Shown: positions 7,844 to 30,912 of the stretch, piece by piece
Position numbering within the stretch: position 1 is the stretch's first letter
Layout: every line of letters begins with the position of its first letter
From: a virus
Virus record (IMG/VR): IMGVR_UViG_3300021373_002232
Location: 1 to 31,402 of that record
DNA: 31,402 nt
Strand: one strand, 5' to 3'
Made by a program: the position numbers and the translations under genes
Notes under the pieces: generated by a model
The model's database searches: none
Told to the model about the DNA's origin: nothing
What the model saw: only the letters and a program-made list of their open reading frames with translations

Positions 7844-10800
7844 TTAGAACTCCGTTGTTCCGTAAGTTGTCCGCTTGTAGGCACTGCCGCCTACGCCGCT
7901 GGACTTGCCTTCGGTTGGCTTGAAGCCATCCACGATACCTTCCTTGAAGACTCTGTTGCCGCCGAGGAATGGCGTCCGTCCGACGACCTCTCGGATCGCT
8001 TGACGCTGACGACCCGGCGTTACATCGCCGCCCATCAGCTCGCTGCCAGCATCGGCAACACCAGCAAAGACACTCATTCCATCGCCGAACACCAAGCCAT
8101 AGGTTGGGCCAAGGATCGCCTCTGCTACCCGCTGGCGGCCATATGCTCCGTTGTCTGCTTGTTCAACCGTCGTGCGGAAGATGTCGCCGAGGAGACCAAG
8201 GCCACCCGCCTGCATGAACGCAGTGGTGTACCAGCCTGCAATGGCATCAAGCTGCTCATCGGACCACTCGGGGCCAACAATGTTGCTGAAGCGGGTGGTT
8301 TCATTGATACCGACGCTTTTGCCCTCTTCGCCGCCGCGTGCCATCACCAGATCCTTACCAGCGATGGAGCCAGCAGCGACCGCTGGGCCGAGGGTCATAA
8401 GCAGTGCGGGCTTCTTCATGTACTGCGCCGCAGTCCCATAGTCGCCAGCCCGGATTGCTTTCCATGCTTCGCCCGTCTCATCGACCAGCATCTCTTTGGC
8501 GAACCGCCCATACATGATGCTGAATGATTTAAGCTGATACGCCATGGCTCCCCAAGGGTTGCTGGCGAACAGCGGCATGTCGTGCGGCTTCGGCGAAAAG
8601 ATCGTTGCGTCGGTGAACCGAATGACTGCACGCTCAAAGGCGTGGTCCGCATCTGTGCCACCACCCAGCTTTGGGATAGGCTGATCCGCCTCATACGTCA
8701 TGCCGAACTTTTTAAGCTCACGCTTGTGACGCAGGTACGCTGGGCTGTCTTTGGCACCAATCCCCATCTTCTTGATGGCTTCCATATGGTGACGAAGGCC
8801 ATGCTCGCCGATGGCGGCTGCGCCAGCGCGCTGCATGTTCGTCCACGGAGTAAGGCCCGTCAACTTGAAGAAGGTGCTCTGCAAGATGTTGTTGCCATCC
8901 CCGATGAGCTGCGCCATCCGCTCGTGGGTGATGCCATCCATGGCCACACCAATCCGGCGGATGGTGTCACGGTACTCTTTGTCGCCAAGGTACTTCGACC
9001 ACCCCTGCCACGCAGCCTTAAAATCGCCGCTCCGAATGATCGGCATGGCGATGTCTGAGAAGGACGAGATGGTTGCGTAGGATAGCAAGGTGACGTTTTG
9101 GAAAGCCCGGAAGGCGCGGGAGGTGCCACGCATTGCCTGACTGGCGTTATCCGCTGGGCGGCGCATCATCAACTTCGCGAAGCCGTCAATGGCGTTGAGA
9201 TCATCTGGGTCAATTTGGGCGGGGACACCCTTGAAGTCAGCGAGGGCATCAACGATAGCATCGACACGTCGTTCGTAGGTGATGGGTGGCTCACCTCGGG
9301 TTCCGCGATAGGCATCCATCAGGATGCGCCTTGCGGCTGCTGGGTCCGTGCGCCCAACACGGACTGCCTCCTTCCCAAAGTCATTCGCAGCTTTTGGTGG
9401 CAGCATGCTGATCGTAATTGTCTCTTTGCCTTCTGCTGCTTGCACGCCGTCAGGACCAATGACTGTCCTGTTCGCCGCAAAGTTCTTGTCGGTTTGCAGA
9501 AGCTCAATGATGCCTTCTTCGCCCAGTTGAGCAGCCTTGGCGTAATCAGCAATACCATGGCCATTCAAGCCGAAGTGGTCGGCCTGCTGGATCACACGTT
9601 CGGTTTCGTCGAAGTAGCGGACGACGGTCGCAAGGAGCGACTGCTCCTGATACTTCTGCGCGCTCTCAAGCAGCTCAGGTGCTGCCTGATGGAAGCGCAG
9701 CAGACGGCTGAAGTCGGTGCTGTCGATCAAGGAGGAGGGGCTATCGAAGTCAACGACACCTGTGTCATTGCCCGTGATGTTGTTGAAGACTTTGTCGGCA
9801 AAGGCCTGAGCGTCGTCATTGCTGATCGTCGTCCCAGCGTTTGCACGCTCCTGCTTGACGTAAGCAAACATCAGGCTCTTGAAGCCCTTCTCGTCGCGTC
9901 GAACGATTTCTGGGTTCCACACTTGCGGGAAGTAATCAGGACCAAGATCCCCGACCAGAATGCCAGCGTCCTTCATACGCCGCAGTTGGCCTTGGAAGTT
10001 GTCCCGCAGTGCAGAGAACATTTGACGCTCTTGGTCGTTGCGCAGCTCGCTGGTCTTGCTAGGGTCAATCATAGCCGCCCGGATACGCTGAAGCGGAGCA
10101 GGCTCTTTGAATGCAAAGCCCATGACCTTGTTGCCTTGAGCAGCCGTGGTCATGTAATTGCCCACCTTGCTCAAGAAGTTCGCTGGCATACCCGGCAAGT
10201 TGTTGAGACCAACGATGCCGTAGCCTTCGCGCTTCACACCCTCGAGCAGAGGCATGATGATATTTCCGGTCATCCGGGTGTGCTCAGCGGTAAAGTTGGC
10301 AAACTTGTCGGCCAGCTTTTTCATCCCGGCTTTGTTCAACCGCTGCTCAGCGCCATCGAACAACGACCGGAACATGCGATCCATGCCAGAGCGCGTGCTC
10401 TCTCGAGAGTTAGTTACGATGTTGGACACAGCTTCGGCCACAGCCGGTGCGACCTCGTTTAGGCGCAGGTAGTCTTCGACTGCACCTGCGCTGCTTGGAG
10501 GAAGCTTGAGGTCGGAAGCCACTAACTCCCAGAACTCTGCGCCCAAACCTGCTTTGACGACGCCGTCTTCATCCGGCGCAGCGAGCAGGTCAGGGGACTT
10601 GAGACTGCGAACCTGATCGCTGTCAAAGATGGCAATCACGGGCAGGGCTGCGCCCTTACGCTCAGTCGTGCCGATGATGCCTTCGTAACCCGCAGCCATG
10701 AGGTCATTGTTGATGCTGGCTCGGGCTGCGCTCTCGCTCATACCGGAGCGCTCAAGGACATCGACCGCAAGATTGTACAAGTCATCGCCATCGATGCTTT

Positions 10801-13800
10801 CATTGATGGACTGGCCGAACTGTATGAGTGCTCGCTCGTCCTTCTGGCCAACGGCGCTTTGCATCAGACGCACCAGTTCATCGTCGGCACGATACACTGC
10901 ATTCTGCTGGAAGTTGGCCACGCGACTTGCACTGGTCACGACAGGGGCCACGTCGTCGAAGCTTTTACCCGTTTTGACCAGAGCCTGTATCATACCTTCG
11001 CGCTGTTCAAACAGGCTGACCATCTCGTTGCGAAGGTCAATCGCATCGGCACTGGTCTCAGCGCTCGCTTGCTGACCACGAAGCTGAAGCAACTTCTCAT
11101 CAAGCAGCTCCAAGCGGTCGATAAGGTCGGCTGCCCGTTCCTCACCTTCCTTGGTTCTGGGCATGGTGTCCGCCGTCTTGACGCTCAGAGCGCCATCCGG
11201 TTCTGAGCTGACGTAAGTAGCCAGTCCAAACATGCCCTCCGTTTGCACGCGCCCGTTGTTGTCCACTGGCGTGCCCTTACGGACAGGGACATACAGAGCT
11301 GCTGGCAAGCCGTTGGGCATGATGTTGAACGCACCCTTCGTGAAGCGCTGAATGCCAAGGCGCAGCGCTTCTGTGCCTTGCTCCAAAGCTTCGCTGAATG
11401 CGTCTGCCGCAACTGGGGGTGGGACCGCAGCCCCAACGCCATAGGACGAAGCGATTGGGCGCTTCTTGCTGGCAAACATATCGCCGTACTTCATCAGGCC
11501 GGGGTAAGACTTCTTCAGATCGCCATTAGCAATCAGCCCGTTCACCAAGTACGCGCTCCGATCCATGTAGCTGCGAGCAGACCGAAGGAATGCGGCCCGG
11601 TCGGGGCTCTGCGGGAAGACGTTTTCAAAGTTGGAGCGACCAGCCAGTAGCTCGACAACAGCATCCGTCATGAAGTCATCAGCAGGCCTGCCGTTGATCG
11701 ACTTAAATGGCATGTCGTTGCTGGCCCGAATGGCCATACGGACAACGTCTCGGACTGGATCATCATCCGTGCCTCGGGTTAGGCCCTGAGCAATCTTGCG
11801 CAACTCAGAACGCATGCCCTTAAAGCTTGCGCTGGCATCCGTCATTGCTGCCTTGCCGAGCTGGGAGGCCTCTTCACCCAGAATGTTTGCCAACACCTCG
11901 TTTCTGATGGGGCCATTGGCTTGTTCGTTCGTCGCGCCTACCATGTTCATCACACGGAAGAAGAGCTGACGCATCGTTGCTGTCATCTCTGGATCACGGC
12001 GCACCTGCATCTTGCGTTGCAAGCTGCGAAGCTGAGGTCGAGCGGAGAACGATATACCATCCAGCGAAAGGCCATTCTGACGAGCCTCGCGGATGCGCAG
12101 GTTGTCTACGACGCTGTCTTGCGGCGCTAGGTTTTCCTTGCCACCAGCACGCTGGTAAGCACCCAAGATCTCGTAGAAGTCAGTGAGGTCGTTACGGTCA
12201 GCGGCCAGAACCATCTTGCGGAATAGTTGCCGTGGGGTGGAGCCATCGTCGTATTTGCCGCGTTGCTTAGAGGCAGGCGGTTCGGCGTCAGCCATCCGCT
12301 TCATCTTTTGGGCAATCAGCTTTTCGCGCTTGCCCATCGTGTCCCCTGCGCCAAAGCTGAACATGTTGACCAGCTCGTCCATCGACGCATCGGTCGGAAT
12401 GTCGTTGGCATCCAACGCAGCGTCGAACTTCTCGTTACCTTTCTCCAGATTGCCCTTATAAAAAGCACTGCCGACCGCTTGTGCGGCCCGGTCTTTCTTG
12501 ACCTGCTTTACGCTGTCAGTGACCTGACCAGTTGTGAGCTGGTTAGCAGCAGCATCACGCTTGTTGCGCTCTGACCGCTTGCGGTTGCGGACGCGACTCT
12601 GCTGAGACTGACCGCTCTCCTTGAGCTGGTACTCGTGCGCGTATCGGTTCTCCATCCGCGTGAGCAACTTGCCAATTAGGCCGTCGTCATCGATCTCCCG
12701 TGTGATCCGCTCGTATACATCCGGCGCGTAGTCATTGAAGGTAAACAGCAAATCTTCTTGCTCGGCAGCCAGACCGCTCGCGAACCGTTCGTCCGTCGCG
12801 TAGGTCTTGGTCATGTCGTTCAGCTCGTTCATGTCTCGGATGAGGCTGAACCGGATAGGCTTGAGCGGCAAGAACGTGCCTGTGTTGTTACCGTAGACCT
12901 CACCGCCAGCTCTGTCGGCTAGGTACTTGTTCTGCGCTGAGGTGTTGGTTTGCCCAAAGACAAACCTCATGAACTTGCGCATGACCGGCTCGTAGGACTT
13001 GCCGAAGTCCCGCGCTTCAAGCCACTCATTCCTAAGCTGGGTCAACTCGCCGTAGCGCTTCCGAATGTGGACGCCATCGTTCGTCTTTGGAGGCCGGTCA
13101 AAGTCATTGAGGCGGTACTCTAACCGCTGAGTGTCGCTGAGAATGTTCGAGAACATGGGGTCGAATTGTTCCGGCACCCCGCCGCTCATGAAGAAATCAA
13201 ACAGCTTGCGGAATACGTCCTTGAGCTTCTCAAAGAAGGTGTTCCGACTTTCGCTCAGGGCGCGACGGAAGACTTTATCGCTGCCCCACTTGGTGAACAT
13301 GTTGGCAAAGACTTCGTGGAAGTTCTTACCGACGTCCAAGCCTTGTGGCGCACCAGACAATCCAATTTTGTCTAGCCGCAGGTTGCCCAGATCGTCGATG
13401 TAGTTTGCCAGTTCAGCAAAGAACGCGCCCTTGACCTTTGGCGTCAGGACATAGTCCACGCTCCAGTGAGCCATCTCGTGCAACATAACGTGCGCTGGGT
13501 GGAACTGGCCGTCCGGGTTTAACTCAATGGTGCCACCAGACAGGAACTCTTGCTGCTCAACACCGATTTCATCAGTGGTTGCAGCCGCAGCACGGTAACG
13601 CCCAGCCACGGTGCTTCGGTCTTTCGCATCAACTTCGCCGAGACGTGCGAAGGTTGGCGCACCATCGGACTGGATGCCACTAAGGATGCGCTTTACCACG
13701 TCCAAGGTTTTGGTGTTGTGCCCCTTGAAGATGGCGTCGAGCGCATTGTAAGCGGCGAAGCGGGTGCCCTGCGGCATGATAATGCCCTGCGGCAAGACCC

Positions 13801-16768
13801 GGCTCATGTAGCTGTACATCATGATGGCGCGTGCGGCCAGTTGACGGGCATTGCCTGTGCCAAGGTCTGCACGCAGCATCGTACTTTCGCGCTTCAGCAA
13901 GTCAGCATAAGTGTTGAGCGGCGTGCCCTCATCGATGAAGAGCTTGAACATCGCCTGTTCTTCAGCCGTTTCCGGCTTTGGCAGTTCGACGTCTGCAATA
14001 TCTTTAAGCTGTGGTGGGCCAGCAAAGGCAGCGTCCAAGCTGTACACTGTACCGGGTAGGTTCATCCGGTTAGTGTCAATCGGCGTTGCCTCTTTAACGG
14101 CAGCAGCCAGACGGGCGTACTTACCTTTGGTCGGCTTCTCTGCTGGCAGGAAGTAGGCCTTCCAGTTGGACGGGTCGAAGCGAGGTTCCATAACCTGCCC
14201 ATCGCGAGGAGCGCCAATAAGCTCACGGAAGCCATCACCACGCTCGATTTGGCCTCGACCTATCTGGCGCACTGGGCGATCAATCTTGCCGGGGCCAACA
14301 TAGGCCACGGTCAGGACGAGATCCGCTTTCTCGACCGGCAGGTCTGGATAAGACGCGGCACCGACACGATCTGCCGTTGCCCCTAAGTCAATGTGCGTCG
14401 TGCCATTTGCGTCGATGAACTCATTGATGGCGATCTCGCGTTGGGCTTGCTCTGCATCGCGAGTGACACGGTCGAGTTCATTGTTTTGGTGGAACTTAGC
14501 CAGCACCTCTTTGGCATCATCAAAGTCAGCGCCCGCAAATGAGCGGTCCAAAGTTGCGTCGTAGATAATGAAGTTGCCGCGATCAATTTCCTCAATGCGA
14601 CCGCTGCCCGTCAGAGCTTGCACCCGCGATCGGTTCATATACACAACGACACCATTTTGGGCCGTGATGCCTACGCCGCCGTCAGCGGCGGTCAATTCTG
14701 CAATCTCTTGTTTGCGCAGGCGGTTCACAAAAGCCATGGCCTGCGTGCGTGCCTCAGCTTCTTCCTTGCCACGGTTGATGAGCTGCTCGAGCTTCTCGTT
14801 GAACGCATCCTGTTCAGATGGAGCCAGATCGTCGTAGTTACGGACATCGGTAGCCATCGAACGTCCGTAAGCGTCATCCCCGACAATAACCTTTCCATCA
14901 CTGTCGAGGCTCTTCTTTGCCAGCTCTTCGGCGTAGTTTCGTGCCACGCTTGCACTCGTTGGAGGACGGAAGCCCTTGGCAAACATCCACTGGTAACGTC
15001 CCGGCTTTCGGGTCGTCCGACCTGTCAGCGGATCAATGTTGTCCGTCAGTGAACGACCAGCATTCTCGCTGGTGGCCATCTTTTCAGCAGACTTCGCCGT
15101 CCGGTCAGCAACACGTTCTGGCGTCTGACCAGAGATCTTGCGTCCTGCGAATATCTCATCCAGAGCCTGCGTGGCTGCATCAGCAGCTCCCGTACCCCCT
15201 CGCTGCAAAGCGGCAACACGCTGCTTCAATCGAGCGATCTCTGCGGGAAGGAGCTGGCTCACACGGTTCACCAGTGCAGTGCTATCGGCAACCAGAGCCT
15301 CTTCCAGAGCCTTGTTTGCAGCTCGGACGTCTTCGACAGGCAGGCCAGCAGCTTCTGCTTCTTTGGCGATGTTTGCTTCGATTGCAGCTTCGCTGACGGC
15401 TTCGCCTGTTGCGTCTTCAACTTTCTCTTTGTTGAGGACAGTCGAAACAGCAACTTCAGCCGCGCTGGGTGTCGATGCTTCTGCGGTCAGTGCGCGCTCT
15501 GCGAGGATTGCATCGAGATCGACTTTCGACAGACCAGCCGATGCTGGCGTGTTTGATAGTTGCTCACGGCGAATGACGTAAGCCTCGATCTCCGGGTCTT
15601 TATAGACGTTCTTTCTCTTATCCACAGACAGGTCGAGGCCTGCCTCGTCGGCCATTTTCTTCGCCTTGCTCGAAGGGTTGCCCTTTGGCTTAGTGTCCTT
15701 GGCCTTCGCGGGAGCAGCTTCTTCTGGAGCGTCAGTTGCCGCGCCTTCGGTCTGCGCGGGGGTAGCGGGTTCGCTGGCTGGAGCCGCCTCTGCTTGCTCT
15801 GGAGTAGCGGTACTGGTAGCCGCTGGAGCGTCTTCCGGCACGTCGAAGCCATCAAGATCGAATGTCGCCGCAGACGCCTCGAGGCTGTTTGCTTCTTCCA
15901 GCAGATCATCTTCAGCATCAAAATCGCCACGGGCTGCCGCCTCTGCTGCGTCACGGCGCAGCTCTGCGACTTCCTCTTGTGGTGTGATTTCTGGAGCTGA
16001 AACGGTGGGCTGCTCGGGTGCAGATGGAGCTGGCTGAGCAGGGCCGGGGCCAGTGCCTCGGATTGCACCCGAGATAGCGCCAGCCGTACCACCGATGCCA
16101 GCACCGATACCCGCACCAAACGCTGCCTCCCCGGCAACGTCAGCAGCCAATCGGCCAAAGCTAAATTGATCTTGCAGGCCGAGCTTGATGTCTACGTTCT
16201 GTTGGCCAACTGAGTAAACGCCCCCGAAGCCAGCGCCCAACACGCCTTCCGCCACAGCACCGCGTACAGCACCGGCACGAGCGCCTGCCATCGTGGTACT
16301 GGACCCTGCAAGACGTGCGGCTTGAACTGCTTTAACAACACCCTTACCACCAGCGCCGACAAAGCCACCCACAAAGTTAATCGGGTCGAGGATGAGCGCT
16401 TTACCGTAAGAGGGCAGAGCAGTGCCAGCGCCTACGCCGCCTGTCTGGAAAAAGGCAGGCAGCTTGTTGTGAGCGTCACGGAGACGGGCCTGACGCGCGC
16501 GGCTCTCAGGCGTAGCGGCCTCGGCTCGTTGATAAGCGTTGAAGGGGCCGACAGTGGCGTTCAGTTTGGAGAAGGTCTGGTCGTCGTAGAACTTACGCAT
16601 AAGCTCTTCGTCGTCAGATATGTAGATGCCCCGGTCTTCAAATTCAGCACGAACGTCCGCGATGACACGCGGGTCGCTCATGATGTCCTCGCCGCGAATG
16701 TCGGCGTAAGTGGTTTGTGGGGCAGAAGAAAGGGCCGAAGAACCCAGCAACGAGGATTTGCGGAACAT
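7844..16768 (-). CDS. Giant polyvalent virion protein (2974 aa) with zincin motif and ART-like region
   Basis: One uninterrupted frame of 2974 codons, more than a quarter of the window. Segments in order: an N-terminal charged part; a glycine/alanine-rich membrane-active stretch at about 115-240 (repeated GxxxG-like GAGIGAGIGG); a disordered Ala/Pro/Glu linker at about 240-380; helical regions; a metalloprotease motif H1097-E-M-A-H1101 with a downstream HE-V-F-A-N-M-F at 1151-1157, giving a likely third ligand E1152; a region at about 1820-2057 resembling an ADP-ribosyltransferase fold (LYVPVRKG, GLATYVSSEPDGA, then GYEGI and IAIFDSDQVRSL); and a C-terminal helical part with SIMYGRFAKEML and hydrophobic segments, typical of large polyvalent or internal virion proteins. 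It likely rides in the capsid and is ejected with the DNA. The ART assignment is tentative. GGAG precedes the ATG by 7 nt. Confidence 0.85.
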   Translation of the reverse strand: MFRKSSLLGSSALSSAPQTTYADIRGEDIMSDPRVIADVRAEFEDRGIYISDDEELMRKFYDDQTFSKLNATVGPFNAYQRAEAATPESRARQARLRDAHNKLPAFFQTGGVGAGTALPSYGKALILDPINFVGGFVGAGGKGVVKAVQAARLAGSSTTMAGARAGAVRGAVAEGVLGAGFGGVYSVGQQNVDIKLGLQDQFSFGRLAADVAGEAAFGAGIGAGIGGTAGAISGAIRGTGPGPAQPAPSAPEQPTVSAPEITPQEEVAELRRDAAEAAARGDFDAEDDLLEEANSLEASAATFDLDGFDVPEDAPAATSTATPEQAEAAPASEPATPAQTEGAATDAPEEAAPAKAKDTKPKGNPSSKAKKMADEAGLDLSVDKRKNVYKDPEIEAYVIRREQLSNTPASAGLSKVDLDAILAERALTAEASTPSAAEVAVSTVLNKEKVEDATGEAVSEAAIEANIAKEAEAAGLPVEDVRAANKALEEALVADSTALVNRVSQLLPAEIARLKQRVAALQRGGTGAADAATQALDEIFAGRKISGQTPERVADRTAKSAEKMATSENAGRSLTDNIDPLTGRTTRKPGRYQWMFAKGFRPPTSASVARNYAEELAKKSLDSDGKVIVGDDAYGRSMATDVRNYDDLAPSEQDAFNEKLEQLINRGKEEAEARTQAMAFVNRLRKQEIAELTAADGGVGITAQNGVVVYMNRSRVQALTGSGRIEEIDRGNFIIYDATLDRSFAGADFDDAKEVLAKFHQNNELDRVTRDAEQAQREIAINEFIDANGTTHIDLGATADRVGAASYPDLPVEKADLVLTVAYVGPGKIDRPVRQIGRGQIERGDGFRELIGAPRDGQVMEPRFDPSNWKAYFLPAEKPTKGKYARLAAAVKEATPIDTNRMNLPGTVYSLDAAFAGPPQLKDIADVELPKPETAEEQAMFKLFIDEGTPLNTYADLLKRESTMLRADLGTGNARQLAARAIMMYSYMSRVLPQGIIMPQGTRFAAYNALDAIFKGHNTKTLDVVKRILSGIQSDGAPTFARLGEVDAKDRSTVAGRYRAAAATTDEIGVEQQEFLSGGTIELNPDGQFHPAHVMLHEMAHWSVDYVLTPKVKGAFFAELANYIDDLGNLRLDKIGLSGAPQGLDVGKNFHEVFANMFTKWGSDKVFRRALSESRNTFFEKLKDVFRKLFDFFMSGGVPEQFDPMFSNILSDTQRLEYRLNDFDRPPKTNDGVHIRKRYGELTQLRNEWLEARDFGKSYEPVMRKFMRFVFGQTNTSAQNKYLADRAGGEVYGNNTGTFLPLKPIRFSLIRDMNELNDMTKTYATDERFASGLAAEQEDLLFTFNDYAPDVYERITREIDDDGLIGKLLTRMENRYAHEYQLKESGQSQQSRVRNRKRSERNKRDAAANQLTTGQVTDSVKQVKKDRAAQAVGSAFYKGNLEKGNEKFDAALDANDIPTDASMDELVNMFSFGAGDTMGKREKLIAQKMKRMADAEPPASKQRGKYDDGSTPRQLFRKMVLAADRNDLTDFYEILGAYQRAGGKENLAPQDSVVDNLRIREARQNGLSLDGISFSARPQLRSLQRKMQVRRDPEMTATMRQLFFRVMNMVGATNEQANGPIRNEVLANILGEEASQLGKAAMTDASASFKGMRSELRKIAQGLTRGTDDDPVRDVVRMAIRASNDMPFKSINGRPADDFMTDAVVELLAGRSNFENVFPQSPDRAAFLRSARSYMDRSAYLVNGLIANGDLKKSYPGLMKYGDMFASKKRPIASSYGVGAAVPPPVAADAFSEALEQGTEALRLGIQRFTKGAFNIMPNGLPAALYVPVRKGTPVDNNGRVQTEGMFGLATYVSSEPDGALSVKTADTMPRTKEGEERAADLIDRLELLDEKLLQLRGQQASAETSADAIDLRNEMVSLFEQREGMIQALVKTGKSFDDVAPVVTSASRVANFQQNAVYRADDELVRLMQSAVGQKDERALIQFGQSINESIDGDDLYNLAVDVLERSGMSESAARASINNDLMAAGYEGIIGTTERKGAALPVIAIFDSDQVRSLKSPDLLAAPDEDGVVKAGLGAEFWELVASDLKLPPSSAGAVEDYLRLNEVAPAVAEAVSNIVTNSRESTRSGMDRMFRSLFDGAEQRLNKAGMKKLADKFANFTAEHTRMTGNIIMPLLEGVKREGYGIVGLNNLPGMPANFLSKVGNYMTTAAQGNKVMGFAFKEPAPLQRIRAAMIDPSKTSELRNDQERQMFSALRDNFQGQLRRMKDAGILVGDLGPDYFPQVWNPEIVRRDEKGFKSLMFAYVKQERANAGTTISNDDAQAFADKVFNNITGNDTGVVDFDSPSSLIDSTDFSRLLRFHQAAPELLESAQKYQEQSLLATVVRYFDETERVIQQADHFGLNGHGIADYAKAAQLGEEGIIELLQTDKNFAANRTVIGPDGVQAAEGKETITISMLPPKAANDFGKEAVRVGRTDPAAARRILMDAYRGTRGEPPITYERRVDAIVDALADFKGVPAQIDPDDLNAIDGFAKLMMRRPADNASQAMRGTSRAFRAFQNVTLLSYATISSFSDIAMPIIRSGDFKAAWQGWSKYLGDKEYRDTIRRIGVAMDGITHERMAQLIGDGNNILQSTFFKLTGLTPWTNMQRAGAAAIGEHGLRHHMEAIKKMGIGAKDSPAYLRHKRELKKFGMTYEADQPIPKLGGGTDADHAFERAVIRFTDATIFSPKPHDMPLFASNPWGAMAYQLKSFSIMYGRFAKEMLVDETGEAWKAIRAGDYGTAAQYMKKPALLMTLGPAVAAGSIAGKDLVMARGGEEGKSVGINETTRFSNIVGPEWSDEQLDAIAGWYTTAFMQAGGLGLLGDIFRTTVEQADNGAYGRQRVAEAILGPTYGLVFGDGMSVFAGVADAGSELMGGDVTPGRQRQAIREVVGRTPFLGGNRVFKEGIVDGFKPTEGKSSGVGGSAYKRTTYGTTEF

Positions 16769-16822: not shown

Positions 16823-19120
16823 CTAGTTGCCGGGAACGAGACGAGCGCCTTCTGGGAGGCCGCTGTCGTCTGCTCCAAATATGTCCATCTGAGTGACGTT
16901 TTTAATGCGAGGTGTAGCGCCAAACGCATCTTCAGCGATGAAACGATGCTGACGGGTGGCCTGACTGATGTACTTCTTGAAGTCACCTTGCAGCTCTGTG
17001 ACCTCACTGCTGGTGAAAACGCTGCTCATGTTAAGTGCAGTGGCGAATTGACTTTCAGCATCTGCAATAGCTCGGTTGTAACCGGGAAATTGCGACCACG
17101 CTTGCTGCTGGGCAGTGACCTCACGGGCAACCATGGCCATGAAAATTGGCAGCAGTCCCTTCTTGTTTTTGATTGGCGTGTTCTGAAGACCCGTGCCACG
17201 CTGAGCTTCAAAAGCATCGAATGCGGACGCCATGGCGCGGACAACGGCTTGCTGTCGGTCAGGTGACCCTTGGAGTAGCTCCCTGCTCAGGGGGGTCCGA
17301 CCAATCGATGAACGCCGAGACTGTCCAGAACTATCGGTGCTAAACTCCACCCCAATGCCATACCCGCCTAAAGCTTCAACAGCCGCAGACACCGTTGCAT
17401 CAGTGACTATTTCATCGGAGAGGTCGATTACTCGATCAGTCTCAGTGGCCTGACGGTCAATCTCAGCCTGTTCAGTCGGATCGACTTCTAATGATGGGTC
17501 ATTGGCAGCTTCGAGAATGGCGTTGATTGCGTCGTCATATAGGGCAGCCGCTGCCGCTGGGTTGTAGGCTTGATGTTCAGACGCAGGCAACAAGTCGAGC
17601 GCATAGGCTCCACCTGCCGCATAGATGGCGACAGGATCGTTTGCTGCCGTCATGGCTTTGAACCGCATCAGTTGCCCAGCCCGTTGCTCAGCGGCTTGCT
17701 TGCGGGCGTACAGCGTATTTCCAGCGGCTTTGACCTCGGCAACCAAGGCTTCCTGCATCTGGGCAATCTCTGCACCTTGATCAGCAAGCAAGTCATTGAC
17801 GCTCGTGAAGGTTTTTTCCTGCCGCAGGATCTGATCTCTTTGCCTTGCGACTTGACTGGTGTCGTATATGCCAGCGGAATTGAGCTGAGCTTCGAGTTCT
17901 GCCAACTGTTGCTCAGTGATGTTAGGCGTCATCGTGATGCCGCCATCGCCCATCACAAAGTAGGGACGCATGATCGCCGCAAACTCGTCCACCGCATAAG
18001 CTGGAACAACACGGTTGTTGAAGATGCCAGTGTTGTTCACCTCATCAGTCAGGATGTCCTCCAGCTTAATGGACTGTGCGTCTTTACCTTCGCCAACGCT
18101 AATCGCCATTTGATTTGCTGGACGCCCAACCAAAAGTCCGGCTTTGAAGGTTTCGGTGTCGAGTTCTGTTTCATAGCTGCGGTAGAACTCAGTGTCCTTC
18201 AACGCAGCAATGATTGCCGCATCTGAAGCCTGTGACCCACCAGCTCTTGCGACAGAGATCGCAGTTTGTTGGAGCGTCTCAAGTCCATTTGGACCCAAGA
18301 AATTATCCGGTCTCTTTTGATAGATGCCCTGCATGTCGGCGTTAAGCGACAACTGCAAACGAAGATCCACGGGGACTTGCGACGTGGCGGAACTTGCTGC
18401 GGAGGTTGGGGCTGAAGCCGGAGCTGAAGCCGGAGCCGGAGACGGCATGACTGGGCCAGCGTCTGACACCACAGCAGGTGACCGGCCAGAAGAGGCGGAA
18501 GGTGTTGACTGCGCCGTCATGGTCTGAGGAGCCATGCCTGTTTCGCTCAGGTAGTTGTAGCCGGGGAAGCGGTCGTCTGAGAGGTAGCGGTTGGCTGGGT
18601 CGCTGCGCCATTGATTGAACTGACTTGTCCAGCGGTATGCGTTGTCCGCCGCACGTTGCGAACTGATACGCTCGTTCTCTTCGACAATCGACGCCTGTAG
18701 GCCACGCGCCCACTTGAGGTTATCGGTGTTCACCTCCATGCCAGCAGCCGACAAAAGATCCTCGGGGTCTTTTTGGCCATTGGTATCCTTGATCATCTGG
18801 CGGACAAATGTCGTGCGCTTGACCTGTATGTCGAGGTCTTCAGCTTGACGCCTGCGCTGTTCGCGAAGTTCATCTTCCTGCTTCTTGCGCAGGTTATCGG
18901 CAGCCATACGTTGGATGGACATGCCATCAGGCAGAGCTACGGAGCCACCGGGTGTCGTGGAACCTAGCTGCTTGACCTTCGCATGAAAGTCCATGGCTGT
19001 GGCGTAGGGGTTTGACGCCTTCCAGCGCTCAAACTCTTCTCGGATGGCGGCACGCTCACTGCGGATTTCTTTCCGCCGTTGCCCCATCGCAAGGGATGCT
19101 TTGCCAACATTGTAAAACAT
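16823..19120 (-). CDS. Internal virion protein candidate
   Basis: A 765-residue protein. The N-terminal third is strongly charged and helical (REEFERWKASNPYATAMDF, KKQEDELREQRRRQAEDLD). It is followed by a proline/alanine/serine-rich linker at about residues 200-250, then a mixed helical C-terminal half rich in Ala, Gln and Asp (ALVAEVKAAGNTLYARKQAAEQRAG). No enzyme motif is visible. It sits between another coiled-coil virion protein and the giant gene, the position occupied by ejection or internal virion proteins in short-tailed phages. I chose ATG 19120, which overlaps the previous stop in TGATG and has GAGG 9 nt upstream. A TTG one codon earlier is possible. The function is assigned by position and composition only. 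Confidence 0.68.
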   Translation of the reverse strand: MFYNVGKASLAMGQRRKEIRSERAAIREEFERWKASNPYATAMDFHAKVKQLGSTTPGGSVALPDGMSIQRMAADNLRKKQEDELREQRRRQAEDLDIQVKRTTFVRQMIKDTNGQKDPEDLLSAAGMEVNTDNLKWARGLQASIVEENERISSQRAADNAYRWTSQFNQWRSDPANRYLSDDRFPGYNYLSETGMAPQTMTAQSTPSASSGRSPAVVSDAGPVMPSPAPASAPASAPTSAASSATSQVPVDLRLQLSLNADMQGIYQKRPDNFLGPNGLETLQQTAISVARAGGSQASDAAIIAALKDTEFYRSYETELDTETFKAGLLVGRPANQMAISVGEGKDAQSIKLEDILTDEVNNTGIFNNRVVPAYAVDEFAAIMRPYFVMGDGGITMTPNITEQQLAELEAQLNSAGIYDTSQVARQRDQILRQEKTFTSVNDLLADQGAEIAQMQEALVAEVKAAGNTLYARKQAAEQRAGQLMRFKAMTAANDPVAIYAAGGAYALDLLPASEHQAYNPAAAAALYDDAINAILEAANDPSLEVDPTEQAEIDRQATETDRVIDLSDEIVTDATVSAAVEALGGYGIGVEFSTDSSGQSRRSSIGRTPLSRELLQGSPDRQQAVVRAMASAFDAFEAQRGTGLQNTPIKNKKGLLPIFMAMVAREVTAQQQAWSQFPGYNRAIADAESQFATALNMSSVFTSSEVTELQGDFKKYISQATRQHRFIAEDAFGATPRIKNVTQMDIFGADDSGLPEGARLVPGN

Positions 19121-20577
19121 CAATAACCGCCTCGAACTTTGGAACCCGGATTACGGGCGTCAATCTGCTGTATCTGCCGGTAGGAAGGTGAACTGTAAGA
19201 ACTTCGGTTGCCTTCAAAAGATGAGGCCAGATCAGAGAGAGCATCGCCCAAACCAGTGAAGCCATCACCCTGTCTTTCTACCGCTGCGTTGGCGTTGCTG
19301 CCGTAAGCATCTGCAATGTTGCCATAGCCGGAAATTAAGCCACCCAGCATACCGGCAGGTGCGCCAAACGGCTGAGTGCGTGCAGTAGGCAGATTGAAGC
19401 TTTGTACGGCAGACGGTGCGTTGAGCTGCTGTCCAATCGCACTTGGAAGGCCACCAGAGAATTGCGCTGAGTTCAGACCGACCGGAGTGTTGTAATCGTT
19501 TGCGCTGCGGAACTGTGCATTCAAGATCGTGGAGTTGATCCCAATCGGAGCGCCAACATTCTCGGTGGGCAAGGTGTTCATCAGGCCGCGCCGCTGGTCG
19601 AAGCCAGCGAGGCCGACATTCGCTGTCTCGCCCATGATTGCATTCCGGGTGGCAATGTCGCGCTGGATGTCGTCAAACAACAGGCCACGCTCACCGGAGA
19701 TGTACGCCAGTGCTTGTTGCTCGGCCTGCATCTGCGAGGCAGCCAAGTCGTCTGCGAGACGCTGAGCCATGCGACTGCGGGTGTCGCCCGGATCGGTGGC
19801 TGCGATGCCACGACGGCGGAGGTCAGCCTCGTTGAGGCTGGCCATCTGCTCGATGACTTCGTCGTAGCTGTCTCGGGCCGTGTCTCGGTAGCGACCGACC
19901 TGCGCGTCGATCTGCTCTTGGGTCAACGGATCAAGACGACGAATGTCGCCAAGGCCTGACTGCACGTTGCGCAGCTCGTCTTGGAACCGGACAATCTGCC
20001 CGTCTAGTGCAGTACGGAAGACGCCCTCTTGCTCGCGCTCCGAACGGGCGATGCCTTGTGCGCGCTCAAACTGGTCAACGCTGTACTGGCGCTCAGCTTC
20101 TGCGCGGAATTGGTTGTCGTAGTATCGGCGCAGCTCTTCGTCACGTTCGCCTGCTGCAATCTGTTGCGCTCGAGCTAACTCGGCCAAGGCAAAGTCACGC
20201 TCCTCTGCGGCGATCTGCTGGTTCTGCAACATGAAGCCAAGCTGTTCGACCCGCTCTTGTGCGGCCTGCTTGTCTAAGAACTCTTGACGCTGGATGAAGT
20301 AATCACGCTCTTGCTGAAGCTGCGTGTTGTTCATCATGTACATGTCGAAAGCTTGCTTGCGCTCTTGGGCGGCAAGCTGACGGTTTAGCGCGTCCTGCTG
20401 GCGAGTGTACTGCTGCTCAGAATTGAAGGCATCACGTTGGAAGGCCAGAGCACTTCTCTGCATCCCGATGGCATCGTTCTGCTGATCGAAAGCCTGTTGC
20501 GCTTGTCGGCCTTGGGTCAGTGCGCCAAACAAGCCGAGGCCTGCTTGAATACCTGAGATGACGTTCCCGATGCTCAT
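19120..20577 (-). CDS. Coiled-coil internal virion protein candidate
   Basis: A 485-residue protein. Residues 1-25 are a small glycine-containing hydrophobic segment (GNVISGIQAGLGLFGALTQG). From about 26 to 290 it is one long Gln/Arg/Glu-rich helical region with little proline, predicted to be coiled coil (FDQQNDAIGMQRSALAF, ALAELARAQQIAAGERDEE). The C-terminal 180 residues are glycine/asparagine-rich and probably loosely folded. This profile matches internal core or ejection proteins that line the DNA path in podoviruses (inference). AGGAG lies 6 nt before the ATG. The stop overlaps the next start by 1 nt, so it is coupled to the 765-residue protein. Confidence 0.65.
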   Translation of the reverse strand: MSIGNVISGIQAGLGLFGALTQGRQAQQAFDQQNDAIGMQRSALAFQRDAFNSEQQYTRQQDALNRQLAAQERKQAFDMYMMNNTQLQQERDYFIQRQEFLDKQAAQERVEQLGFMLQNQQIAAEERDFALAELARAQQIAAGERDEELRRYYDNQFRAEAERQYSVDQFERAQGIARSEREQEGVFRTALDGQIVRFQDELRNVQSGLGDIRRLDPLTQEQIDAQVGRYRDTARDSYDEVIEQMASLNEADLRRRGIAATDPGDTRSRMAQRLADDLAASQMQAEQQALAYISGERGLLFDDIQRDIATRNAIMGETANVGLAGFDQRRGLMNTLPTENVGAPIGINSTILNAQFRSANDYNTPVGLNSAQFSGGLPSAIGQQLNAPSAVQSFNLPTARTQPFGAPAGMLGGLISGYGNIADAYGSNANAAVERQGDGFTGLGDALSDLASSFEGNRSSYSSPSYRQIQQIDARNPGSKVRGGY

Positions 20578-29895: not shown

Positions 29896-30912
29896 TTAGG
29901 CACGGGTAATGATAATTTGACCGCGTGAATTGCTGTATCCGCGCGCCCCACTGACATTCGAAACAAGACTGCTGTCGTAGTAGGCCGAACCTCCACCACC
30001 GCCAGCGGCATCATTCCCGGCAGCATAAGCAGAGCCGCCGCCCCCACCGAAATAACCGGAGCCACCGCCGCCGCCGCCTTCGTTTTCGCTGCTCCCGTCA
30101 TAGTCATCAGCGCCACCGCCGCCAAAACCAGCGCCAGCTTGCTTGGCAGATGGCGCTGATGTTCCCAAAGAACTGGTCCCCTGAGCGCCCCGAGCGGTCG
30201 TGGTCCCCCCACCGCCGCCCCCTGCGTTGTCAACAGTAGACCCAGCAGTACCGGATAAATTAGCTCCTCCTCCTCCCGCACCGCCGCTTCCGACGGACCG
30301 GCTGCCCCCGCCGCCGCCACCGCCAGCAATAATGATTGCAGAAGATTGGGACAGGCTCGTTCCACTGAACAAGCCACTCAGCCCACCGCCGCCACCACCA
30401 AGTTCTCCGCCCAGACCCTGATCCGCTGGGGTGCTGGAGTTTACGTAGGATTGGGCTAAGTCGCCGCCATCGCCAAAAGCGGTGCCGGGTTCACCAGACC
30501 CTCCTGAGGTGCCAGAACCGCCACCTCCGTAGCCACCAAAGCCCCACTGGATGTTCGTCGCGTTAAAGCCCAGTGCCCCGAGCAGCAGAGTGTAGGTCGT
30601 CCCCGGCTGCAACTTCACCTCGCCAACCACTCGTCCCCCAGCGCCGCCATTCCCCGAACTCCCAGAGCCGCCCCCAGCCCCACGGACGTCAAACTCAACA
30701 TCGACAGCCTGATCTACCGTGATCCGATACAGGTGGGGCAGGGCATTGGATTGTGTGCGATTGGAGCCAGTAGGTGCAGTCAGCGTTACCGACGCGCCAA
30801 GGACGGAGAAGTCTACGTCAGTCGCCGTGCCACCAAAGTTGAAAGGTAAATACGACAGGACGGGGTCGAAGACCGACACCACAGTCAGAAAGGGAGCGCT
30901 GAAGATTGGCAT
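29896..30912 (-). CDS. Glycine-rich fibre or adhesin protein, ALK/LTK-type glycine-rich domain
   Basis: A 338-residue protein. The first 60 residues are a beta-like N-terminus (FLTVVSVFDPVLSYLPFNFGG). From about 70 to the end it is a glycine-rich domain with a recurring layout: VEFDVRGAGGGSGSSG, YTLLLGALG, FGGYGGGGSG, AIIIAGGGGGGGS, FGGGGADDYDG, and a terminal GQIIITRA strand. Alternating beta strands and runs of GGGGG match the ALK/LTK-like glycine-rich domain and phage polyglycine tip proteins, which bind receptors in tail-fibre tips such as those of T-even relatives. It follows the previous stop by 0 nt (TAA ATG), so it is probably co-translated with the appendage gene to its right. A role in host recognition is inference. 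Confidence 0.7.
   Translation of the reverse strand: MPIFSAPFLTVVSVFDPVLSYLPFNFGGTATDVDFSVLGASVTLTAPTGSNRTQSNALPHLYRITVDQAVDVEFDVRGAGGGSGSSGNGGAGGRVVGEVKLQPGTTYTLLLGALGFNATNIQWGFGGYGGGGSGTSGGSGEPGTAFGDGGDLAQSYVNSSTPADQGLGGELGGGGGGLSGLFSGTSLSQSSAIIIAGGGGGGGSRSVGSGGAGGGGANLSGTAGSTVDNAGGGGGGTTTARGAQGTSSLGTSAPSAKQAGAGFGGGGADDYDGSSENEGGGGGGSGYFGGGGGSAYAAGNDAAGGGGGSAYYDSSLVSNVSGARGYSNSRGQIIITRA

What the first reader, a model, noticed from the sequence alone, without database searches (positions are those of the whole stretch)
7844..16768. 2974-residue polyvalent protein with zincin motif, ART-like region and membrane-active segments
A single uninterrupted frame holds a HEMAH metalloprotease signature (H1097, E1098, H1101, likely E1152), a region at about 1820-2057 with LYVPVRKG at one end and GYEGI...FDSDQVRSL at the other resembling an ADP-ribosyltransferase fold, GxxxG-rich stretches near the N-terminus, and a virion-protein-like C-terminus. 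The combination implies an ejected multi-effector protein rather than a plain core protein. The ART reading is a hypothesis.
Basis: partly seen in the sequence, partly recalled or inferred. Interest (0 to 1): 0.72.

Follow-up and report, generated by a model that had tools for sequence, protein, structure and literature searches.

The report
Giant phage ejection protein, altered ADP-ribosyltransferase
This is an outsized version of the protein that short-tailed phages shoot into bacteria ahead of their DNA; it carries a conserved zinc-protease site and an ADP-ribosyltransferase-shaped domain that has lost its key histidine yet is still strictly conserved, so a familiar weapon fold seems to have been given another job.

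Summary
It is best read as a T7-gp16-like ejection protein: the third gene of a conserved 485-aa/766-aa/giant cassette, with a C-terminal module that in a relative matches 'internal virion protein with endolysin domain' (E 1.9e-13). The zincin is well supported: HExxH plus a downstream glutamate are invariant in all ten aligned proteins, dN/dS is 0.015, and zincins are among the structural matches. The ART guess was right about the fold: homologous regions in relatives hit Pfam ART-PolyVal (best E 4.4e-7), and residues 1819-2058 match the ART-like part of the solved cyanophage A4 pre-ejectosome (Z 8.1, 153 residues). But in all ten sequences of the window's clade the strand-1 catalytic His (YHGT) is Val or Ile, while dN/dS there is about 0.04. 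That suggests a repurposed pseudo-ART, not the standard enzyme. A second, degenerate zincin precedes it. No transmembrane segment was found, and GxxxG does not exceed composition. So: a new variant of phage polyvalent/ejection proteins. 'Ejected, with a zincin' is supported by inference; 'multi-effector' stays open.

The parts
7844..16768 (-). Giant virion/ejection protein gene, 2974 aa, ATG start at 16768, stop codon 7844-7846
   Evidence: collinear homologues in L003-L006
16034..16516 (-). Conserved Gly/Ala-rich N-terminal region (residues 85-245), like 'internal virion protein D' gp36 of Roseobacter phage CRP-810
   Evidence: 35% identity to gp36 over about 314 columns; no transmembrane segment by hydropathy and no GxxxG excess
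15674..16036 (-). Ala/Pro/Glu-rich, poorly conserved linker (residues 245-365)
   Evidence: alignment of five homologues
13193..13726 (-). Zincin-like metallopeptidase domain (residues about 1015-1192)
   Evidence: conservation; model mce52bcb8b20b with zincin matches; BFVD match E 7.1e-7 to a large polyvalent protein; dN/dS 0.015
13466..13480 (-). HEMAH (H1097, E1098, H1101), predicted zinc ligands and general base
   Evidence: invariant in the ten sequences, from both clades, and present in CRP-810 gp35
13313..13315 (-). E1152 of F(H/Q)EVFAN, candidate third zinc ligand
   Evidence: invariant in the same sequences; lies in a later helix of the model
11633..11851 (-). Degenerate second zincin (residues about 1640-1712): aligns with HEIGH...EEWFAESLAEYMAER of CRP-810/L020/L026, but HExxH is lost
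10595..11314 (-). ART-like domain (residues 1819-2058)
   Evidence: structural match to 9k3a chain B residues 1418-1601, Z 8.1, rmsd 4.0, 153 aligned; homologous regions hit PF18760; BFVD matches E down to 5.7e-6; dN/dS 0.04
11273..11293 (-). Strand 1 'YVPVRKG' (1826-1832): V1827 stands where the canonical ART has the catalytic His (YHGT)
   Evidence: MAFFT, hhalign and the start of the structural alignment give the same register
11213..11215 (-). Y1852 (GMFGLATYVSS), the retained strand-2 Tyr of the H-Y-x signature
   Evidence: invariant in 14 of 14 sequences
10964..11164 (-). Helical-hairpin insertion in the ART-like domain (residues about 1869-1935)
   Evidence: predicted helices at model positions 139-198, matched mainly by coiled-coil entries
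7919..9166 (-). Conserved C-terminal virion module (residues 2535-2950), gp16-C-like
   Evidence: the homologous module of L028 matches phrog_342 E 1.9e-13, phrog_684 and phrog_6958; related parts of proteins of KPP25, phiA008 and TL-2011b
16823..19123 (-). 766-aa upstream gene, position of gp15 in the cassette
   Evidence: homologues at the same place in L005, L006 and weakly L027
19120..20577 (-). 485-aa gene, position of gp14 in the cassette
   Evidence: homologues at the same place in L005, L006, L027, CRP-810 and L029

Best explanation
The gene encodes the largest ejection protein of a podovirus-like phage, functionally placed like T7 gp16 or the N4 virion RNA polymerase. It is packaged in the head, leaves through the tail with the products of the two upstream genes, and builds the inner-membrane/cytoplasmic part of the DNA-ejection conduit with its C-terminal gp16-C-like module (inferred from synteny and family matches). 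Its zincin probably binds zinc and cuts the giant chain itself, before or after ejection, or a nearby virion or host protein (site conservation shown; activity and target inferred). The ART-like domain has the fold of ART-PolyVal domains but lacks the His that positions NAD+. It most likely serves as a binding or structural module of the ejectosome rather than as a standard ADP-ribosyltransferase (fold, residue loss and strong constraint shown; new role inferred).
For: Third, giant gene after 485- and 766-aa genes downstream of capsid and tail genes, an order that recurs in relatives. C-terminal module: relative L028 matches phrog_342 'internal virion protein with endolysin domain' over its positions 786-1202, E 1.9e-13. 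N-terminus like CRP-810 'internal virion protein D'. Zincin: HExxH + E invariant across two deeply split clades, dN/dS 0.015, model with HExxH helix and E helix, PPEP/ATLF-type matches over W1008-1192, weak collinear match to the N4 vRNAP HExxH region. ART-like: PF18760 hits in relatives at 4.4e-7, 7e-5 and 0.0066; A4 pre-ejectosome match; His to Val/Ile in 10 of 10 sequences of the clade with dN/dS 0.04 (75 synonymous, 12 non-synonymous changes).
Against: The window protein itself hits no Pfam, NCBIfam or PHROG family convincingly; family evidence comes through relatives. Zincin structural Z is only 4-5 and the ART model has mean pLDDT 70. No peptidoglycan-hydrolase domain like that of T7 gp16 was found, nor transmembrane helices by hydropathy. 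No direct evidence of packaging, ejection or cleavage. Upstream genes have no named family.
Confidence: 0.6

Rival explanations
1. The ART-like domain is a working ADP-ribosyltransferase with a non-canonical active site (for example using R1830, Y1852 and D2051) and modifies host proteins after ejection, as T4 Alt does; the protein is a true multi-effector.
For: Pocket strands are among the best conserved parts, with Y1852 and the GYxG...F..D..RSL block kept; dN/dS 0.04. R1830 is invariant in the window clade. Relatives with the canonical His exist in the same protein family.
Against: The strand-1 His of H-Y-x ARTs is Val or Ile in all ten clade members; PF18760 does not match the window protein.
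Confidence: 0.22
2. A purely structural core protein in which both the zincin and the ART fold are relics of effector domains, kept only as building blocks.
For: The second zincin has decayed in place and the ART lost its His, so loss of activities happens in this family; in A4 an ART-like domain is part of a solved pre-ejectosome.
Against: The first zincin keeps all ligands over about 25-30% identity divergence, with dN/dS 0.015, which a relic would not be expected to do.
Confidence: 0.15
3. The zincin is an effector that cuts a host defence or envelope protein rather than the phage protein itself.
For: Iyer et al. list this as an alternative role for polyvalent MPTases (PMC5512222).
Against: Unprocessed packaging is reported for the N4 vRNAP and processed packaging for P1 DdrB (PMC5512222), so neither role is favoured; no target can be inferred from sequence.
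Confidence: 0.2

Closest known systems
Phage-type polyvalent proteins (Iyer et al. 2017, PMC5512222)
   Same: Very large, multidomain, late-gene neighbourhood, zincin-like MPTase together with an ART-PolyVal-type domain and virion regions.
   Different: The ART-like domain lacks the family's strand-1 His; a second zincin is degenerate; the C-terminus is a gp16-like ejection module.
T7 gp16-like ejection proteins (internal virion protein D; review PMC8954989)
   Same: Third gene of the ejection cassette; C-terminal module of a relative matches phrog_342; CRP-810 gp36, homologous to the window N-terminus, is annotated internal virion protein D.
   Different: 2974 aa against 609-1337 aa in the reviewed phages; no transglycosylase found; carries zincin and ART-like domains.
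Phage N4 virion RNA polymerase (third ejection protein, 3500 aa; PMC12633501)
   Same: Giant third ejection protein with an HExxH region (N4 residues 2124-2375); a weak collinear match to the window zincin.
   Different: No RNA polymerase domain was found in the window protein; the ART-like part is not matched in N4.
Anabaena cyanophage A-4L ORF27L (pre-ejectosome chain, PDB 9k3a)
   Same: ART-like fold within an ejection-complex protein; structural match over 153 residues.
   Different: 1717 aa, canonical LYHGT kept, no HExxH in ORF26-29; sequence similarity is marginal.
Roseobacter phage CRP-810 gp36-gp35-gp34
   Same: Collinear homologue along the whole protein, 28% identity.
   Different: Canonical YHGT in the ART and two complete HExxH sites; annotated as three genes.

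Membership tests
Polyvalent proteins (phage type) | Two or more unrelated domain types in one chain | tested here: met
   Zincin plus ART-like fold plus virion module; catalytic competence of the ART part is doubtful
Polyvalent proteins (phage type) | Location among late virion genes | tested here: met
   Downstream of capsid and tail genes on the same strand
Polyvalent proteins (phage type) | Carried in the particle and delivered into the host | not testable with these tools
   Needs virion mass spectrometry and an ejection experiment
Zincin-like MPTase | HExxH plus downstream Glu on a later helix | tested here: met
   Invariant; helices 402-417 and 461-474 of the model carry them
Zincin-like MPTase | Zincin fold | tested here: inconclusive
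   PPEP-2, PPEP-3 and ATLF-type zincins match at Z 3.0-4.9 over 89-115 residues; below the tool's own confidence level
Zincin-like MPTase | Zinc-dependent proteolysis | not testable with these tools
   Bench assay
ART-PolyVal / Tox-ART-HYD2 (PF18760) | ART fold | tested here: met
   A4 pre-ejectosome match Z 8.1 over 153 residues, a range that holds the LYHGT motif of A-4L ORF27L; homologues hit PF18760
ART-PolyVal / Tox-ART-HYD2 (PF18760) | Catalytic His in strand 1 | tested here: not met
   V1827; Val or Ile in 10 of 10 clade members
ART-PolyVal / Tox-ART-HYD2 (PF18760) | Tyr in strand 2 | tested here: met
   Y1852 invariant
ART-PolyVal / Tox-ART-HYD2 (PF18760) | Asp in strand 5 | tested here: inconclusive
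   D2049 in the window, Asn in close relatives; Asn or Ser also in relatives that keep the His
ART-PolyVal / Tox-ART-HYD2 (PF18760) | Score above Pfam's gathering cut-off | tested here: not met
   No PF18760 match of the window protein at E up to 1; L027 reaches the cut-off
T7 gp16-like ejection protein | Third gene of the ejection-protein cassette | tested here: met
   Conserved order in L005, L006, L027, L029, CRP-810
T7 gp16-like ejection protein | gp16-type C-terminal module | tested here: met
   Homologous module of L028 matches phrog_342, E 1.9e-13; the window protein alone has no PHROG match
T7 gp16-like ejection protein | Putative transmembrane helices | tested here: inconclusive
   No 19-residue window above 1.4 by hydropathy, a cruder test than the predictors used for T7
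T7 gp16-like ejection protein | N-terminal peptidoglycan hydrolase (absent in P22-like members) | tested here: not met
   No such family match; not required in all gp16-like proteins (PMC8954989)
N4 virion RNA polymerase | T7-type RNA polymerase domain | tested here: not met
   No match in Pfam, NCBIfam, PHROGs or to the polymerase part of N4 itself

The most novel reading that the evidence does not exclude
An ADP-ribosyltransferase fold inside a phage ejection protein has lost its NAD+-anchoring histidine and been recruited, under strong purifying selection, to a non-enzymatic role in the DNA-ejection machine (or to a new chemistry), while relatives with the same architecture keep the canonical site: an enzyme-to-scaffold switch within one ejected protein family.
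Probability: 0.45. Interest if true: 0.6.

Novelty: new variant of a known kind. Interest (0 to 1): 0.5.

Why it matters
It ties two descriptions that are usually kept apart, 'polyvalent effector' and 'ejection-conduit protein', to one chain and one gene position. It also offers a natural comparison (CRP-810 with a canonical ART site and two zincins; the window clade with one zincin and an altered ART) in which to ask what enzymatic domains do in an ejectosome: process it, act on the host, or simply build it.

Tried and rejected
Direct Pfam, NCBIfam, PHROG and PDB-sequence searches of the window protein gave nothing useful; a ddrB-ParB hit at 639-721 (E 0.075) is not credible. PDB-sequence profile searches gave only chance-like hits such as calmodulin and coiled coils. 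Two genome-contig scans found no relative. Foldseek against the PDB with the ART model gave no significant hit, apart from short local tankyrase matches, because the helical hairpin dominates. GxxxG and transmembrane readings were tested and not supported. N4 vRNAP homology of the zincin is suggestive only: 1 of 150 shuffles reaches the score. The cyanophage A4 structure paper was not found in the library. Reading the strand-5 D/N variation as proof of inactivity was rejected, because relatives that keep the His also have Asn or Ser there.

Full report
WHAT IS THERE. The frame 7844-16768 is open on the minus strand only and encodes 2974 residues from an ATG. The window is a complete IMG/VR record of 31.4 kb, classed linear, with no host named. 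The gene lies downstream of capsid (PHROG major head protein, E 2.7e-38), tail and other late genes on the same strand, directly after genes for 485 and 766 residues. Beyond its 3' end lie a primase-polymerase/AAA protein, an AAA ATPase, a YqaJ-like nuclease candidate and DUF3310.

RELATIVES. Nine loci of the window's own clade (L003-L006, L008-L012; L003 at 64%, L004 at 45%, L005/L006 at 56-57% identity) were found in viral contigs. A second clade holds Roseobacter phage CRP-810 (28%), L020/L025, L026, L027 and L028, with L029 branching first. No relative was found in bacterial or archaeal genome contigs. L027 and L029 are also single frames of about 3200 residues.

EJECTION PROTEIN. The cassette order (485-like, 766-like, giant) recurs in L005, L006, L027, L029 and CRP-810; the 485-aa protein is homologous in all five, the 766-aa protein in L005, L006 and weakly L027. 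This is the 14-15-16 order described for podovirus ejection operons (PMC8954989). The N-terminal region is homologous to CRP-810 gp36, annotated internal virion protein D. The C-terminal module is conserved in both clades; in L028 it matches phrog_342, 'internal virion protein with endolysin domain', positions 786-1202 of 1235, E 1.9e-13, and two virion structural families. Related stretches occur in structural or hypothetical proteins of KPP25-like phages, phiA008 and TL-2011b.

ZINCIN. HEMAH 1097-1101 is the only HExxH, with 0.011 expected from composition. HExxH and the Glu of F(H/Q)EVFAN (E1152) are invariant in the ten sequences and present in CRP-810. In the closely related pair L006/L009 this domain shows 18 synonymous against 1 non-synonymous change, dN/dS 0.015. 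The model (mean pLDDT 66.5, roughly 72-83 around HExxH and E1152) has strands followed by a helix with HExxH and a later helix with E1152. VIA-align lists PPEP-2, PPEP-3 and ATLF-type zincins over W1008-1192 at Z 3.0-4.9: consistent but weak. BFVD gives one strong match, a 'Large polyvalent protein associated domain' protein, E 7.1e-7. The N4 vRNAP HExxH region aligns collinearly, including the trailing 'MFSN(I/L)L' segment, with 1 of 150 shuffles reaching the score of the region-restricted test. The clade-specific His and Asp that Iyer et al. describe for one phage MPTase clade are only partly present: H1090 within the window clade, not in CRP-810-type proteins. A second zincin, complete in CRP-810, L020 and L026 (HEIGH, then a Glu-bearing segment such as EEWFAESLAEYMAER), aligns with residues about 1640-1712 of the window protein, where HExxH is gone.

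ART-LIKE DOMAIN. CRP-810 gp35 hits PF18760 ART-PolyVal at 7e-5, L027 at 4.4e-7 (its gathering cut-off), L026 at 0.0066; four of five scanned relatives match at E up to 0.5. The His-bearing relatives have YHGT in strand 1, G-[IV]Y in strand 2 and G(Y/H)DG...F in the last part. The window clade aligns throughout: Y1826, G1832, G1848, Y1852, G2027, Y2028 and F2048 are kept, but the His is V1827 (Val or Ile in 10 of 10). The register is the same by MAFFT, hhalign against the A-4L domain and the start of the structural alignment. In the model (mean pLDDT 70; later core strands 85-92) residues 1819-2058 match 9k3a chain B 1418-1601, the cyanophage A4 pre-ejectosome, Z 8.1, rmsd 4.0, 153 aligned. Other rows of similar Z match only the helical hairpin. 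In Anabaena phage A-4L, ORF27L carries LYHGT at 1425 and GSGTYFS, within that range; identity of 9k3a chain B with ORF27L is inferred from the numbering. BFVD gives six matches at E below 0.001, one of them annotated as polyvalent, and a lower-ranked 'PolyVal ADP-Ribosyltransferase'. dN/dS of the domain is 0.04 (L006/L009) and 0.05 (L003/L010), against 0.21 in the linker 1260-1640 of L006/L009. So the fold is kept under constraint without the standard catalytic residue. In PARP-type ARTs, loss of this His is associated with loss of activity (general knowledge), so a pseudo-ART is the simplest reading, but an unusual chemistry is not excluded. L029 also lacks the His (YFVRSNG), so by the tree it was probably lost twice.

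MEMBRANE CLAIM. Not supported by hydropathy or by GxxxG counts. Amphipathic insertion is not excluded.

MECHANISM. Shown: gene order, family links, conserved zincin site, ART-like fold (by homology and model), loss of His, selection. Inferred: packaging, ejection, conduit role, self-processing, non-enzymatic role of the ART-like domain. Overall confidence 0.6; my estimates for single steps are ejection-protein identity about 0.85, ART fold about 0.9, active zincin about 0.7, inactive or altered ART about 0.65.

NOVELTY. Polyvalent proteins with zincin and ART are known (PMC5512222), giant ejection proteins with HExxH are known (N4), and an ART-like domain in a pre-ejectosome is in the PDB. New here, as far as these searches go, are the clade with the His-less but constrained ART-like domain, the decayed second zincin, and the joining of these with a gp16-like ejection protein. 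Hence a new variant of a known kind.

Noticed in passing
L001 27011-27072 (CRP-810, gp35/gp34 junction): A 31-bp tandem duplication (copies 97% identical) shifts the frame and splits the giant gene of CRP-810 into gp35 and gp34; L020 (93% identical in the ART region) reads through as one frame. Natural break or sequencing error cannot be told.
   Followed up: partly
L003, insertion between aligned window residues about 1664 and 1670: L003 carries an insertion of well over 100 residues exactly where the degenerate second zincin begins, so this spot looks like a site of domain gain and loss.
   Followed up: no
L002 7015-13164 (Aeromonas phage phiA008 gene 66): The phiA008 protein that shares the C-terminal module carries an N-terminal Staphylococcal-nuclease homologue (PF00565, E 7.9e-7): another enzyme fused to the same virion module.
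   Followed up: no
L031 25321-28497 (Anabaena phage A-4L ORF28L): A Peptidase_M23 domain (E 1.3e-21) sits in the gene next to the ART-like ORF27L, possibly the peptidoglycan-cutting part of that ejectosome.
   Followed up: no
window 29896-30912, minus strand: 338-aa extremely glycine-rich protein (many GGGG runs) among the late genes, near the amidase.
   Followed up: no
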